Assembly (NCBI GenBank): GCA_003552075.1
Contig: PUOJ01000007.1
Location: 1 to 43,577 of the forward strand
Length of the DNA stretch: 43,577 nt
Reading direction: 5' to 3'
DNA from: Bacteroidales bacterium
Lineage (GTDB): Bacteria > Bacteroidota > Bacteroidia > Bacteroidales > UBA7960
The translations under genes and the position numbers were made by a program. Below, one piece after another: positions 20,432 to 28,426 of the stretch; within the stretch, counting starts at the first letter, position 1, and each line of letters begins with the position of its first letter. The notes beneath the pieces are model-generated. The model was not told the origin of the DNA, searched no databases, and worked only from the letters and a program-made list of their open reading frames with translations.

Positions 20432-22537
20432 ATGGAAAATCGCAGCAACATATTGTGGAGGATGCGCCTGGTCTATTTTATGATGGCCTTTTTCGGACTG
20501 TTGATAATTGGGAAGGTTGTATATATTCAGTTTGCAGAGGGCGACCATTGGCGGGAAAAAGCTCGCCGCTCAGGCATCAGGCATGCAACCATAGAGGCTG
20601 TCAGGGGCGACATCTACGCCGATGATGGCAGCCTGCTTGCTACCAGTGTTCCGGTATTCGATATCCGCATGGACCTAAGCAGGGAAGTGACTTCTGATGA
20701 CCTGTTTTATGCAAAGGTAGATTCTCTGGCCCTCGAGCTCTCGCGTTTGTTTGGTGATCGGTCACCGGCACAATATCGCGCAGCACTGGTCAGGGCACGC
20801 AGGGACCAAAACCGCTACTTTCTTGTCAAGCGCAGGGTGAGCTGGGATCAGCTTCAGCAGCTCAAACATTTCCCGCTGTTCCGCCTCGGAAGATACGGCG
20901 GGGGGTTGATCGTTGAACGGCAAAGCAGAAGGGAGATGCCCTACAGGTCTCTGGCAGCAAGAACCATCGGTTATGAGCGAGAGGGGGTTTATGTCGGGTT
21001 GGAAGGTGCTTACCGGAATTACCTGGAGGGCGTGGAAGGCAAACGTCTTGAACGACGAGTCAGTGGTGGAACCTGGATTCCTGTAAGCAATCAAAACGAA
21101 ATACAGCCTCAAAACGGCAAAGACATTGTCACTACCATTAACGTACAAATCCAGGATATAGCCGAAAAGGCGCTTAAACAACAGTTGTCCCGCTTTCGTG
21201 CTGAGCACGGAACCGTTGTAATCATGGAGGTCTCCAGCGGAAAGGTCAAAGCCATTTCCAACCTGACCCGGAACAATCAAACAGGTCGCTATGAAGAAAT
21301 CTATAATTATGCTGTAGGCCAAAGCACGGAGCCAGGATCCACATTCAAACTGCCGGTGTTGATGGCCGCCATGGAGGATGGTATGATTGCGCCGGAGGAT
21401 AGCATAGATGCACTCGGAGGCCAGACCGTTTATTATGGCAGGCGTATGCGGGACGCTGGTGCAGGGCATGGTGTCATCACCGCACAAAAAGCTTTTGAGA
21501 TATCGTCCAATGTGGCTGTTTCACAAATTATTTATTCAAACTACAAGGACAAACCCAGCCAATTTATTGACCGATTGCGCGATATGCACCTGCATGAACC
21601 TTTGGGTGTTGAGATCAGCGGAGAGGGAAGTCCGCTCATCCGAGGTGAAGGTGAAACGGGGTGGTCAGGCTTATCACTTCCCTGGATGTCCATTGGCTAT
21701 GAAGTATCCATGACACCCTTGCAGATATTGACGTTTTACAACGCCATTGCCAACAATGGACGCATGATGAAACCCTTGTTCGTACAGGAAATCCGGCAGT
21801 CGGGGCGGACAATCAAAAGGTTTACGCCTGTTGAGATCAACCGGGCAGTGGCATCAAGAAATACGCTAAAGAATGCCAGGCAGATGCTACGCGGGGCAGT
21901 CAAAAACGGAACGGGTAAAAACATCAACTCCCGGCATTATCACATAGCAGGTAAAACGGGAACAGCACAGGTAGCAGATTCCGGGCGCGGTTATCAGACT
22001 GCTGCAGGCATTCAGCATCGGGCAAGTTTTGTTGGCTATTTCCCGGCCAATGAACCAAAATACAGTTGCATCGTGCTGATTAACCGGCCCATTGGCAATA
22101 TTGTAACAGGGAGCCAGGTGGCAGCCCCGGTGTTCCGTGAAATAGCAGACAAAATGTTCGCTGCCCGCATGTTCCTGCCCGACATTGAACCACCGGCCAT
22201 AGCCCCGGCAGTTGCAGCTTTGCCAAGGTTCCGCAATGCCCATCCGCAGGATGTGAAAGCAATATACCACGCCCTTGGCGCCCATGTCATTGATATGGCA
22301 AACACCAACTGGGTGGAAGCAAGAGTCAGCCAGGACACTGTCAAGCTCCACGAAAAGGAGTATATAGAAAACCTGGTGCCTGACGTGGAGGGAATGGGTA
22401 TACGCGATGCGATGTACATTTTGGAAAATGCCGGACTCAGGGTTTTGTACAGGGGTCGGGGCACCGTGAGCACGCAAGACCCACGGGCTGGCACCCGAAT
22501 CAGGGAAGGAAGTATCATAGAGATTGAATTGTCATGA
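20432..22537 (+). CDS. ftsI: Penicillin-binding protein FtsI with C-terminal PASTA domain
   Basis: EPGSTFKLP (SxxK), EISSNVAVS (SxN), AGKTGTAQVA (KTG), C-terminal VPDVEGMGIRDAMYILENAGLRVLYRGRG. Confidence 0.95.
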   Translation: MENRSNILWRMRLVYFMMAFFGLLIIGKVVYIQFAEGDHWREKARRSGIRHATIEAVRGDIYADDGSLLATSVPVFDIRMDLSREVTSDDLFYAKVDSLALELSRLFGDRSPAQYRAALVRARRDQNRYFLVKRRVSWDQLQQLKHFPLFRLGRYGGGLIVERQSRREMPYRSLAARTIGYEREGVYVGLEGAYRNYLEGVEGKRLERRVSGGTWIPVSNQNEIQPQNGKDIVTTINVQIQDIAEKALKQQLSRFRAEHGTVVIMEVSSGKVKAISNLTRNNQTGRYEEIYNYAVGQSTEPGSTFKLPVLMAAMEDGMIAPEDSIDALGGQTVYYGRRMRDAGAGHGVITAQKAFEISSNVAVSQIIYSNYKDKPSQFIDRLRDMHLHEPLGVEISGEGSPLIRGEGETGWSGLSLPWMSIGYEVSMTPLQILTFYNAIANNGRMMKPLFVQEIRQSGRTIKRFTPVEINRAVASRNTLKNARQMLRGAVKNGTGKNINSRHYHIAGKTGTAQVADSGRGYQTAAGIQHRASFVGYFPANEPKYSCIVLINRPIGNIVTGSQVAAPVFREIADKMFAARMFLPDIEPPAIAPAVAALPRFRNAHPQDVKAIYHALGAHVIDMANTNWVEARVSQDTVKLHEKEYIENLVPDVEGMGIRDAMYILENAGLRVLYRGRGTVSTQDPRAGTRIREGSIIEIELS

Positions 22538-23997
22538 AAAAAACACTGGCAGACGTTTTATACAAAACAGGTATCAGTAAAACCACTGGCGACCTGCAAC
22601 AGGACATCCTGGCGGTCACGGATGACAGCCGTAAGGTCACCCGGGGCTCACTTTTTGTCGCCGTAAAAGGGCTTAGTGCAGATGGTCATCAGTTTATTGA
22701 CCAGGCCATCGCACAGGGTGCCGCTGCCGTAGTCTGCCAGGAATTGCCTTCGGTCACCAATCCTGCTGTCACTTACGTGGAGGTTGCAGACAGCCGGAAG
22801 GCGCTTGGGTGGATCGCTTCTAACTTTTACGACCAGCCCACGGAAAAGCTCCATGTGGTAGGCGTTACCGGTACAAATGGAAAAACCACAGTGGCGTTTT
22901 TGCTATATGAGGTCTTTACCAAATTAGGTCACCCCTGTGGGTTGATATCTACCATAGGCCATCGCATTGGCACAAAAATGCTGGACACAAGCTATACCAC
23001 GCCGGATCCTGTGACACTCAACAGCCTTTTGCACCAAATGGCAAGCGAAGGCTGCGAATATGTTTTCATGGAAGTGAGCTCTCATGCCCTTGATCAGGCC
23101 AGGGTTGAAGGCATGCGATTCGCCGGCGCCATTTTCACCAACATCACGCACGATCACCTGGATTACCATCACGGGTTCAAGGAGTATCTGCAAGCCAAGC
23201 AGCGCCTCTTCCAGTCGCTGGACAAAAATGCTTTTGCGCTTACCAACCTGGATGACAAAAACGGCATGATCATCATGCAAAACAGCAAGGTGAAGCCAGT
23301 CACATACAGCTTGAGGGCCATTGCAGACTATAAGGGCAAACTGCTTGACAACTCCTTTGCTGGTCTTCATCTGATGATAGACGGCCACGATGTATGGTGT
23401 AAGCTTACCGGCACCTTTAATGCCTATAACATATTGGCTGTCTACGGAACTGGGCGCATACTCGGGAAGGCGCCGGATGAACTGCTGGCAGCTATCTCAG
23501 GCTGTGAAGCACCTGAAGGTCGTTTCGATTATTTTGCAGGAAAGGACAACATCATTGGCATCGTTGATTATGCACATACGCCTGATGCCTTGGAAAATGT
23601 CCTGAAAAACATCCAGGACCTGCGCGGCAAACATGAGAAACTGATCACGGTCATTGGCTGTGGCGGAGACCGTGACAAGTCCAAGCGCGCACCCATGGCC
23701 ACCATTGCGGCCCGTTACAGCGACCAGGTGATCTTCACAAGCGACAATCCCCGGTTTGAAGATCCGGAAGCCATCATCCGGGACATGGTCAAAGGCCTTG
23801 AGCTTGACCCTGCAATGAAAAATAAATATGTGCGTATCGTCGACCGGAAAGAAGCCATGAAAATCGCGAGGGTGATGGCCAGAAACAATGACATCGTGCT
23901 TGTGGCAGGCAAAGGACACGAAAAATACCAGGAGATCAGGGGAGATAGAATACCCTTTGATGATAAGGCCGTTTTACAGGAACTGTTAAACAAGTAA
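22534..23997 (+). CDS. murE: UDP-MurNAc-L-Ala-D-Glu ligase MurE (DNPR motif, consistent with meso-DAP)
   Basis: [16 protein letters not shown]-loop; [17 protein letters not shown] overlap with ftsI stop. Confidence 0.96.
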
Positions 23998-23999
23998 TC

Positions 24000-25256
24000 A
24001 TGCTGTACCCGCTTTTTGAATACCTGGATAAGGTTTATGATATTCCCGGAACAGGGGTGTTTCAATACATCTCCTTCAGGGCCGGTATGGCCGTGATCGT
24101 CTCCCTGGTTGTCACGATGATCACAGGCAGACGCATCATCGACTATTTGCAGAAAAAACAGGTTGGAGAAACCATACGCGACCTCGGGCTGGAAGGACAA
24201 CAAAGTAAAGCAGGTACACCTACCATGGGCGGACTGATCATCATTGCCGCCATCGTCATCCCTACTTTGCTGTTTGCCAGGCTGAACAACATCTATATTG
24301 TCCTGATGCTCATTTCCACCTTATGGCTTGGTATCATTGGCTTTATTGATGATTACATCAAAGTGTTCAGAAAAGACAAAAAAGGCCTGCATGGCCGATT
24401 TAAAATCATTGGCCAGATCACCCTCGGAATCATCGTGGGCTCCACACTCTATTTTCATGAAGGGGTTGTAATCAGGGAAAAAGCTGATTTCCCAACAGAA
24501 TACGCTACAACAGATGAATTGCTGGAGCTGGATGGCTTAGTCAGACCGGACTCCCCATTTCCCTTGGAGTCAGAGAAATCTACCAAGACAACAATTCCAT
24601 TTTTTAAAGATAACGAATTTGATTACGCAAGATTGATCGCTTTTTTGGGTGATGGCTACGAAAGATGGGCCTTCCTGGTGTTCATTCCTATCGTGATCCT
24701 GATCATCACTGCGGTTTCGAATGGCGCCAATATTACAGACGGTCTTGACGGACTTGCTACCGGCACATCAGCCATTATCGGGGTAACACTGGGAATCCTG
24801 GCCTATGTGAGCGGCAACATGCTGTTTGCAGACTACCTCAACATCATGTATATCCCCCACACGGGAGAGTTGGTGGTTTTCATCGCCGCCTTTGTGGGAG
24901 CCTGCATCGGATTTCTCTGGTACAACTCCTACCCTGCACAGGTATTCATGGGAGATACAGGCAGCCTTTCCCTCGGCGGTATCATCGCCGTGTTCGCTAT
25001 AGTCATCAGAAAGGAATTGCTGATTCCGATATTATGCGGGATCTTCTTCATAGAAAGTTTGTCCGTAATTATCCAGGTTACCTGGTTTAAGATTACCAAA
25101 AGAAGATTTGGCGAGGGCAGGCGGATTTTTAAAATGGCACACATACATCATCACTTTCAGATGAAAGGATTGCATGAAGCAAAAATTGTGCAACGCTTTT
25201 TCATTGTGGGTATCATGCTGGCGATCTTTTCAGTGATTACACTGAAGCTGAGGTAG
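24000..25256 (+). CDS. mraY: Phospho-MurNAc-pentapeptide translocase
   Basis: [65 protein letters not shown]. Confidence 0.97.
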
Positions 25257-25467
25257 ATTGAATACAGCCGGAATGACTTGGGCTCCAGGGCATCATCATC
25301 CCGAACCAAGTGCGCAATCGCACTGATTGCCGTGAGAGCTGCTAAGGTTGATGACAGATTACCGCGGATCAAGGACTGATTGGGCTGACATACGGATGGG
25401 AATTTGCAGGTGCGACAAGAGGTTGAATAAACAATAAGGGTTACAACTAATAAGACAGGAATAGGAT

Positions 25468-26016
25468 ATGGATCGTTTGGAAAAGACATTGAAGGAAAGC
25501 GGGGGCATCTACGCTGGAATGGCAAAGTCCATTGCCTCCAGACTGATCGACGTGCGTAAGGAGGGAATTAAAAACAGCTTGAATGGTTTTCAGAATCAGG
25601 CTCACCGGCTGGAGGAAGTGGCCTGTATAAGAGGGGTCCGTTTTATTAATGACAGCAAGGCAACGAATGTGAACGCAGCCTGGTTTGCTCTTGAAAGCCA
25701 GGACAAACCAATAATCTGGATTGCCGGAGGCAGGGATTCAGGTCATGATTATTCATCCCTCCTGCCACTGGTGGCAAAAAAGGTTAAGGCATTGATATGC
25801 CTGTCAGCAGATGGCTCAAACCTGGTCAGTCAAATGCAGGAAGCCATGGCATGCATTTACCATGTGAGGTTTATGGAGGCAGCTGTAAATACGGCATATA
25901 GGCTGGCAGACCCGGGAGACAACGTGTTGCTGTCACCCGCATGCCCGAGTTTTGACTTGTTTGAAAATTATGCTGACAGGGGAAATCAGTTCAAAGCACA
26001 CGTATATGCATTATAA
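25468..26016 (+). pseudogene. murD: MurD remnant: C-terminal domain only (N-terminal and ATP-binding domains absent)
   Basis: HRLEEVACIRGVRFINDSKATNVNAAWFALES and LLSPACPSFDLFENYADRG match the MurD C-terminal domain. Only 182 aa versus about 440; no GxxGKTT motif; in-frame TAG at 25462-25464 just before the ATG. Confidence 0.85.
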
Positions 26017-27289: not shown

Positions 27290-28426
27290 ATGCAACATAT
27301 AAAAGGCACATACAAAAACCTCAGGGTGATCATAGCCGGCGGTGGCACCGGTGGCCATGTATTTCCAGCCATTGCCATTGGTTCTGCACTGAAAAAGCAG
27401 GTTTACCAGGTGCAAATCCTGTTTGTTGGAGCAAAAAACCGCATGGAAATGCAACAAGTGCCTGCTGCAGGCTTTCATATTCTCGGACTGGACATTTCAG
27501 GCATTCAGCGTAAGTTAAGCTGGAAAAACCTGTTGCTCCCCATAAAGATCATCCGCAGCCTTGCCGCATCCAAGCAGATCGTCAAACGATTCAGGCCTGA
27601 TGTAGTCATTGGGGTGGGAGGCTATGCCAGCGGCCCGCTTTTATGGGCAGCGGCAAACCAAAAAGTCCCTGTAGTCATACAGGAGCAAAACTCCTACCCG
27701 GGCATCACCAACAGAATCCTCGCAAAGAAAGCGCAAAAAATTTGCGTGGCTTTTGCTGGCATGGAAAAATATTTCCCGAAGGAAAAGATCTTTATCACTG
27801 GAAACCCAGTGCGACAGGATGTAATCAAAACCGAAGGAAAATACAACGAGGCCATGCATTATTTTGGCCTATCCGGCAACAAGCCGGTGTTGTTTGTAAC
27901 CGGTGGCAGCCTGGGTGCCGGAAGCATCAATGAAGCCTTAACCAGGCATATCCGGCTGTTCCTTGAGCACAATATTCAGGTGATCTGGCAGACCGGTACT
28001 GCTTACCTGGAGGAAGCCAGGAAAGCCATAGCCGGGTCAGATACCGGTCAGCTTTATGTAAGTGCTTTTATCGACAGGATGGATTATGCATTTGCTGCTG
28101 CAGATGTTGTTGTAAGCAGGGCTGGAGCCATCGCGGTATCCGAAATCTGCGCAGTGCGCAAACCCGCAGTGCTCATTCCTTCACCCAATGTGGCGGAAGA
28201 CCATCAAACCAAAAATGCCATGGCACTGGTGAACCATCATGCGGCTATCCTGCTTAAGGATGAACGGGCAGCATCAGAGCTGGGGCCTGTCATCCTCGAC
28301 CTGATACATGATGAATATAAAAAGCAACAGCTTAAAGAGCGGATTGCCGGGATGGCATACCGCGATGCGGCAGAGGCCATTGCCGGCGTGGCACTCAGCC
28401 TGGTAAGGAAAAACAGCAACACATAG
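27290..28426 (+). CDS. murG: UDP-GlcNAc:lipid I GlcNAc transferase
   Basis: IIAGGGTGGHVFPAIAIG, QEQNSYPGITNRILAKKA, VTGGSLGAGSINEAL, VSRAGAIAVSEICAV. Confidence 0.96.
   Translation: MQHIKGTYKNLRVIIAGGGTGGHVFPAIAIGSALKKQVYQVQILFVGAKNRMEMQQVPAAGFHILGLDISGIQRKLSWKNLLLPIKIIRSLAASKQIVKRFRPDVVIGVGGYASGPLLWAAANQKVPVVIQEQNSYPGITNRILAKKAQKICVAFAGMEKYFPKEKIFITGNPVRQDVIKTEGKYNEAMHYFGLSGNKPVLFVTGGSLGAGSINEALTRHIRLFLEHNIQVIWQTGTAYLEEARKAIAGSDTGQLYVSAFIDRMDYAFAAADVVVSRAGAIAVSEICAVRKPAVLIPSPNVAEDHQTKNAMALVNHHAAILLKDERAASELGPVILDLIHDEYKKQQLKERIAGMAYRDAAEAIAGVALSLVRKNSNT

What the first reader, a model, noticed from the sequence alone, without database searches (positions are those of the whole stretch)
25257..26016. 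murD in an otherwise intact dcw operon is reduced to its C-terminal domain
Seen: mraY ends at 25256 and the only MurD-like ORF starts at 25468 (182 aa). It covers the MurD C-terminal domain (HRLE, NDSKATN, LLSPACPSFDLF) but lacks the N-terminal UDP-binding domain and the central ATPase domain. No third GxxGKTT P-loop exists in the cluster; only murE (GTNGKTT) and murC (GTHGKTT) have one. The 211 bp between mraY and the remnant carry no recognisable MurD in any + frame. By motif alignment from memory, the conserved Lys in the MurD loop GG-x-DKG-x-D (E. coli K348 region) appears as Ser here (GGRDSGHDY), suggesting relaxed constraint. Knowledge: MurD is normally essential for peptidoglycan synthesis. 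Inference: either a full-length MurD lies elsewhere and this is a decaying copy, or MurD activity is split or replaced, or the assembly is wrong here. The retained ORF, start codon and operon position make it worth testing.
Basis: partly seen in the sequence, partly recalled or inferred. Interest (0 to 1): 0.85.

Follow-up and report, generated by a model that had tools for sequence, protein, structure and literature searches.

The report
Free-standing MurD tail kept by selection
In many Bacteroidales an alternative enzyme pair (MurL and MurD2) appears to do the job of the essential cell-wall enzyme MurD, and the old murD gene has shrunk, many separate times, to the same 180-residue end piece, which natural selection still preserves, so that piece must do something other than MurD's known chemistry.

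Summary
[quoted passage not shown] It is neither a misassembly nor a decaying copy. The same stand-alone domain sits at the same place in 20 of 21 genomes of the genus and in 28 further Bacteroidales genomes. It starts at the same conserved methionine, and in close pairs evolves at dN/dS 0.05-0.12, like active neighbouring genes. On a tree of the flanking genes, full-length and truncated forms interchange at least 16 times (9 forced by strong branches), so truncation happened repeatedly. Ligase function has an obvious substitute: MurL beside a second MurD (MurD2) bearing the L-Glu specificity residues (Arg348 39/39, Glu182 37/39). Glutamate racemase is absent from all 38 MurL genomes tested. 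In the truncated proteins ligase residues (Lys348, Asn268, Asn271, His267) vary freely, while others stay fixed (Asp317, Trp327, Trp at 341). Best reading: after MurD2/MurL took over, dcw MurD became a conserved non-catalytic domain protein, probably an interaction module of the MraY-MurG-FtsW machinery (role inferred). No earlier report was found.

The parts
25468..26016 (+). stand-alone MurD C-terminal domain (182 aa), conserved, predicted non-catalytic
   Evidence: TIGR01087 274-439 and PF02875 full length; intact orthologues in 47 other genomes; omega 0.05-0.12; AlphaFold model pLDDT 82, best PDB matches all MurD
25257..25467 (+). mraY stop to remnant start, 211 nt; no remnant of the MurD N-terminal or central domain
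   Evidence: profile search of all forward frames, no hit; the gap is 0-277 nt (median about 33) in the other genomes
25657..25659 (+). codon of K64 (E. coli K319), K or R in the genus
25738..25740 (+). codon of S91 (E. coli K348, D-Glu contact), free to vary in all stand-alone domains
24000..25256 (+). mraY, upstream neighbour
   Evidence: TIGR00445 331.9 bits
26078..27265 (+). ftsW, downstream neighbour
   Evidence: tblastn synteny in the relatives
22534..23997 (+). murE (dcw context)
   Evidence: Mur_ligase_M match; synteny
27290..28426 (+). murG (dcw context; MurG of Thermotoga maritima is reported to bind MurD)
   Evidence: ORF; PMC6420597
28473..29831 (+). murC (dcw context)
   Evidence: Mur_ligase_M match

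Best explanation
MurL plus MurD2 (L-Glu addition, then epimerisation to D-Glu) replaced the MurI plus MurD route. The dcw murD gene then lost its UDP-binding and ATPase domains but kept its C-terminal domain as a separate, selected, non-catalytic protein between mraY and ftsW. Shown: the truncation, its conservation, purifying selection, repeated origin, co-occurrence with MurL, and relaxation at ligase residues. Inferred from residues and relatives: the L-Glu specificity of MurD2. Inferred from operon position and literature: the retained domain works by binding partners, most likely as a docking or assembly module of the membrane-associated Mur complex (MraY, MurG, FtsW), a second role the MurD C-terminal domain would already have had in the full-length enzyme. 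I put about 0.9 on 'conserved, functional, not a ligase' and about 0.4 on the docking role itself.
For: Stand-alone domain in 20 of 21 genus members and 28 other Bacteroidales genomes, always mraY-domain-ftsW. Omega 0.112, 0.047, 0.054 and 0.121 in four close pairs; mean pN/pS 0.356 against 0.30-0.32 for murE, murC and murG. On the mraY+ftsW tree at least 16 full/truncated changes, 9 forced by starred branches; one clade for the domains is rejected, p-AU 0.0003. Full and truncated forms occur within one genus. MurL in all 24 truncated genomes tested outside the family. In 61 relatives: MurL in 38, MurI above cut-off in 17, both in none. MurD2 R348 39/39, E182 37/39, I319 39/39; MurL-MurD2 fused into one protein in two genomes. 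D182-to-E and K348-to-R are the changes shown to set L-Glu specificity in Xanthomonas MurD2 (PMC8788868). Ligase residues relaxed, others fixed; W at 341 in 48/48 stand-alone domains against 85% in full-length MurD. T. maritima MurG binds MurD (cited in PMC6420597).
Against: No experiment; no binding partner is identified. The window genome's own MurD2 is only half present (contig end), so its full length rests on relatives. MurL scores are below the NCBIfam equivalog cut-off, which was built for Xanthomonadales (238 against 700 bits). Some lineages (G113, G132, G105, G037, G152, G069) have very divergent domains (about 29-37% identity), so constraint is not equally strong everywhere. One MurL genome with a dispersed cluster (G111) shows no domain beside mraY. 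HR and NDSKATN motifs are kept, so some nucleotide- or substrate-linked role is not excluded.
Confidence: 0.66

Rival explanations
1. The domain is a regulatory or accessory subunit of the MurD2/MurL route, for example sensing nucleotide or glutamate or completing a ligase site in trans.
For: All truncated genomes tested outside the family carry MurL, as do the truncated genomes of the genus wherever the MurL locus is assembled. Residues that contact ATP in MurD are kept in most copies: R302 (R or K in all), D317 48/48, most of NDSKATN.
Against: MurD2 is complete in relatives and has its own C-terminal domain. N271, N268 and K348, needed for substrate and ATP contacts, are lost. The gene stays in dcw, never next to murL in the loci read.
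Confidence: 0.2
2. The full-length murD of this order already makes a second, shorter product from the conserved internal methionine, and truncation only removed the unused 5' part of a two-product gene.
For: Met at that column in 37/40 full-length dcw MurDs and 43/48 truncated ones, in an otherwise variable stretch. Sequence upstream of the internal Met is richer in A (0.42) than at other internal Mets (0.32).
Against: The Met may be structural; the column is hydrophobic elsewhere (Leu in E. coli). The context signal is weak and confounded by the coding sequence. Any 5' deletion would use this Met as the next start.
Confidence: 0.15
3. It is a decaying pseudogene of a displaced murD.
For: Ligase residue K348 has drifted and a substitute enzyme exists.
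Against: Intact ORF at the same place in 48 genomes over many families, omega 0.05-0.12, W at 341 in 48/48.
Confidence: 0.03
4. Misassembly or missing sequence at the mraY-murD junction.
For: The MAG is fragmented (198 contigs, 86.5% complete), and an N-terminal MurD part lies at a contig end.
Against: The same junction in sister assemblies and on large contigs, one of 5.26 Mb. The contig-end piece belongs to the murL-murD2 locus, which is elsewhere and complete in relatives.
Confidence: 0.01

Closest known systems
MurD2/MurL alternative peptidoglycan route (Xanthomonas oryzae XOO_1320/XOO_1319)
   Same: MurL homologue next to a MurD with Glu182 and Arg348; no MurI in MurL genomes (PMC8788868)
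   Different: Here in Bacteroidales, not on the published genus list; MurL below the Xanthomonadales cut-off; a stand-alone dcw MurD C-terminal domain is retained, which the papers found do not describe; MurL-MurD2 fusions in two genomes
[quoted passage not shown]
   Same: Sequence and predicted fold; best structural matches are all MurD
   Different: N-terminal and central domains absent; K348, N268, N271 and H267 not kept
MurT of MurT/GatD
   Same: A Mur-ligase derivative that lost a domain and works with a partner; weak structural match (6h5e_D, E 4.7e-5)
   Different: From general knowledge MurT keeps the ATPase (central) domain and loses the N-terminal one; here the ATPase domain is lost too. 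No GatD-like gene beside it
MurG-centred scaffold of Mur enzymes (Bordetella pertussis, Thermotoga maritima)
   Same: MurD reported as a MurG partner, dcw order (PMC6420597)
   Different: No binding test exists for the stand-alone domain

Membership tests
MurD ligase | three domains: UDP-binding, ATPase with GxxGKTT, C-terminal | tested here: not met
   only PF02875; no PF08245; starts at profile position about 265
MurD ligase | D-Glu and substrate contacts K348, N268, N271 | tested here: not met
   S91, G13, A16 in the window protein; variable in all 48 stand-alone domains, 100% kept in 40 full-length dcw MurDs
MurD C-terminal domain (Mur_ligase_C) | profile and fold match | tested here: met
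   PF02875 53 bits (cut-off 28.4); AlphaFold model matches MurD structures, probability 1.00
Pseudogene | broken frame, relaxed selection | tested here: not met
   intact in 48 genomes; omega 0.05-0.12 in close pairs
MurL (C128 ORF) | NCBIfam NF041275 equivalog score | tested here: inconclusive
   237.9 bits, E 1.5e-70, against a cut-off of 700 set for Xanthomonadales
MurL/MurD2 route | absence of glutamate racemase | tested here: met
   window genome: only a 21-bit hit (cut-off 146.65); 0 of 38 MurL genomes above cut-off
MurL/MurD2 route | absence of D-amino acid aminotransferase | not tested
MurD2 | Glu at E. coli 182 and Arg at 348 | tested here: met
   37/39 and 39/39 in relatives; the window genome's part has Glu182, while its 348 lies beyond the contig end
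MurL/MurD2 route | enzyme activities (L-Glu ligation, ATP-dependent epimerisation) | not testable with these tools
   needs biochemistry

The most novel reading that the evidence does not exclude
[quoted passage not shown] It was unmasked repeatedly when MurL/MurD2 made the ligase dispensable.
Probability: 0.45. Interest if true: 0.88.

Novelty: new variant of a known kind. Interest (0 to 1): 0.77.

Why it matters
MurD is regarded as a pure catalyst and is an antibiotic target. Repeated reduction of its gene to the same conserved domain, with ligase residues free to vary, is a natural separation-of-function experiment. It says that the C-terminal domain does something else, and it makes the long-standing idea of a Mur enzyme complex at the membrane testable with one small protein. 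It also extends the MurL/MurD2 route, published for Proteobacteria and Actinobacteria, across much of Bacteroidales, so D-Glu synthesis there is not what textbook annotation assumes.

Tried and rejected
Decay: rejected by omega and order-wide retention. Misassembly: rejected by sister genomes and long contigs. N-terminal domains hidden in the 211-nt gap: profile search with filters off found nothing. Split MurD, with the N-half on C128 as its partner: rejected, since in relatives that gene is a complete MurD2 beside murL. Fusion of the domain to a neighbour in G016/G019, suggested by a reported 619-aa open frame: not confirmed by translation, stops on both sides. Complete loss of dcw murD in genomes with only a MurD2 match: in G037, G069, G105, G113, G132 and G152 a divergent domain is there, in G262 full-length murD, and only G111 lacks it; for G056 and G160 mraY was not found. 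Single ancient truncation: rejected by trees, though a transferred full-length murD could mimic some changes. Contig-length matches place relatives in Bacteroidales (G049 = JAIPAH01). Literature searches found no report of the stand-alone domain.

Full report
What was checked. The window is the whole of contig C149 of a 2.39-Mb assembly in 198 contigs, 86.5% complete. [quoted passage not shown] PF02875 over its full length; no PF08245 match. A profile of 40 full-length Bacteroidales MurDs finds nothing in the forward frames of the 211-nt gap.

What replaces the ligase. The only other MurD part in the assembly is an N-terminal stretch (profile 1-204) that runs off the end of contig C128. [quoted passage not shown] In Xanthomonas oryzae MurD2 adds L-Glu and MurL turns it into D-Glu, and the organism has no glutamate racemase (PMC8788868, PMC5808125). 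The window genome has no MurI above cut-off (21 bits against 146.65). Among 61 genomes (own plus 60 relatives) MurL occurs in 38 and MurI above cut-off in 17, never together. In relatives the gene beside murL is a complete MurD-type protein of about 430-490 aa. Of 39 such proteins, 39 have Arg at position 348, 37 have Glu at 182 and 39 have Ile at 319. The first two are the positions whose mutation switched Xanthomonas MurD2 between L-Glu and D-Glu, and K319T made E. coli MurD accept L-Glu. The window genome's own fragment has Glu182. In two genomes (G113, G138) MurL and MurD2 are one fused protein. L-Glu specificity here is a residue-based inference, not an assay.

The truncated gene is conserved. 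In the genus, 20 of 21 genomes carry the same stand-alone domain between mraY and ftsW (as far as their contigs reach), aligned from the same start methionine with 52-72% identity to the window protein and almost no indels. Outside the genus it was read in 28 more genomes of the order, spread over many families. These include six whose domain was too divergent for the first search and was found by reading the mraY-ftsW junction. One lies on a 5.26-Mb contig, so assembly error is excluded as a general cause. The gap from mraY to the start is 0-277 nt, median about 33, without fossils of the lost domains.

It is under selection. Nei-Gojobori omega is 0.112, 0.047, 0.054 and 0.121 in the four genus pairs with usable dS, similar to murE, murG and ftsW in the same pairs; mean pN/pS over all pairs is 0.356 against 0.302-0.322 for murG, murC and murE. 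One pair from another truncation (G041-G156) gives 0.077, with dS near saturation (2.3); a divergent pair (G187-G089) gives 0.38. Most dS values outside the genus are saturated and were not used.

What is kept and what is lost. Comparing 48 stand-alone domains with 40 full-length dcw MurDs: K348, N268 and N271 are invariant in the full-length proteins (H267 95%) and scattered in the stand-alone ones; G265, T321, A414 and K319 also relax. D317 is 48/48; W at E. coli 327 is 47/48; W at 341 is 48/48 against 85% in full-length; P at 338 is 46/48 against 75%; S410, P411, V363, K362 and F429 columns are also kept. So the D-Glu ligase constraint has gone while a different constraint stays or tightens. 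AlphaFold gives a folded domain from about residue 45 on (mean pLDDT 82, pTM 0.76), and its PDB neighbours are MurDs. The first 40 residues are predicted with low confidence.

It happened many times. On a mraY+ftsW tree of 88 loci, full and truncated states need at least 16 changes, 9 of them forced by well-supported branches. On the domain sequences themselves a single truncated clade is rejected (p-AU 0.0003). Within single genera both states occur: g13 (G244 full; G041 and G156 truncated), g139 (G262 full; G180 truncated) and g57 (G184 full; G085 truncated), all read at the locus. The count cannot separate truncation from re-acquisition, but a truncated gene cannot regrow its domains by mutation. 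All truncated genomes tested outside the family have MurL (24 of 24).

How it most likely works. Steps shown: MurL/MurD2 present, MurI absent, 5' part of dcw murD (two of three domains) lost, C-terminal domain retained under selection. Steps inferred: MurD2/MurL supply the D-Glu-containing precursor; the retained domain has no ligase activity (it has neither P-loop nor UDP-binding domain); and it serves as an interaction module. The docking idea rests on its fixed position between mraY and ftsW and on published contacts of MurD with MurG (PMC6420597). An accessory role with MurD2 or MurL, or nucleotide sensing through the kept HR and NDSKATN motifs, is the main rival. The conserved Met at the start column (37/40 in full-length MurDs) allows the idea that full-length murD already makes a short product from an internal start; the context signal is weak.

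Limits. No experiment, no partner identified, and no test of D-amino acid aminotransferase. Full-length dcw MurDs in MurI-less, MurL-carrying genomes keep all ligase residues, so those cells may run both routes; where their D-Glu comes from is open. Organism names could not be attached to the truncated genomes; the order is Bacteroidales by contig-length match of relatives. The literature library covers open-licence papers only, so 'no prior report' is limited to that.

Noticed in passing
L252 (G113 contig C12) and L253 (G138 contig C329): MurL and MurD2 are fused into one protein (885 and 949 aa), a MurL-MurD2 fusion not mentioned in the papers read.
   Followed up: partly
L071, L076-L081, L083, L085-L088 (family f1 full-length dcw murD): Genomes with MurL and without MurI still carry a full-length dcw MurD with all D-Glu ligase residues, so two MurD routes may coexist; the source of D-Glu is unexplained.
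   Followed up: no
G000 C128 end, G005 C140/C129, G088 C158/C214, G033 C38, G001 C3: Several assemblies break inside murD2 at a similar region; cause unknown.
   Followed up: no
G051 (order member, 98% complete, about 10 contigs): No MurD above E 1e-35, no MurI and no MurL match; possibly a reduced or absent wall pathway.
   Followed up: no
L161 (G111 contig C183): mraY is detached from the dcw cluster in a MurL genome, and no stand-alone MurD domain lies beside it.
   Followed up: partly
L096 and L099 (G016, G019): the genome search reported a 619-aa open frame around the domain; direct translation shows stops on both sides, so no fusion.
   Followed up: yes
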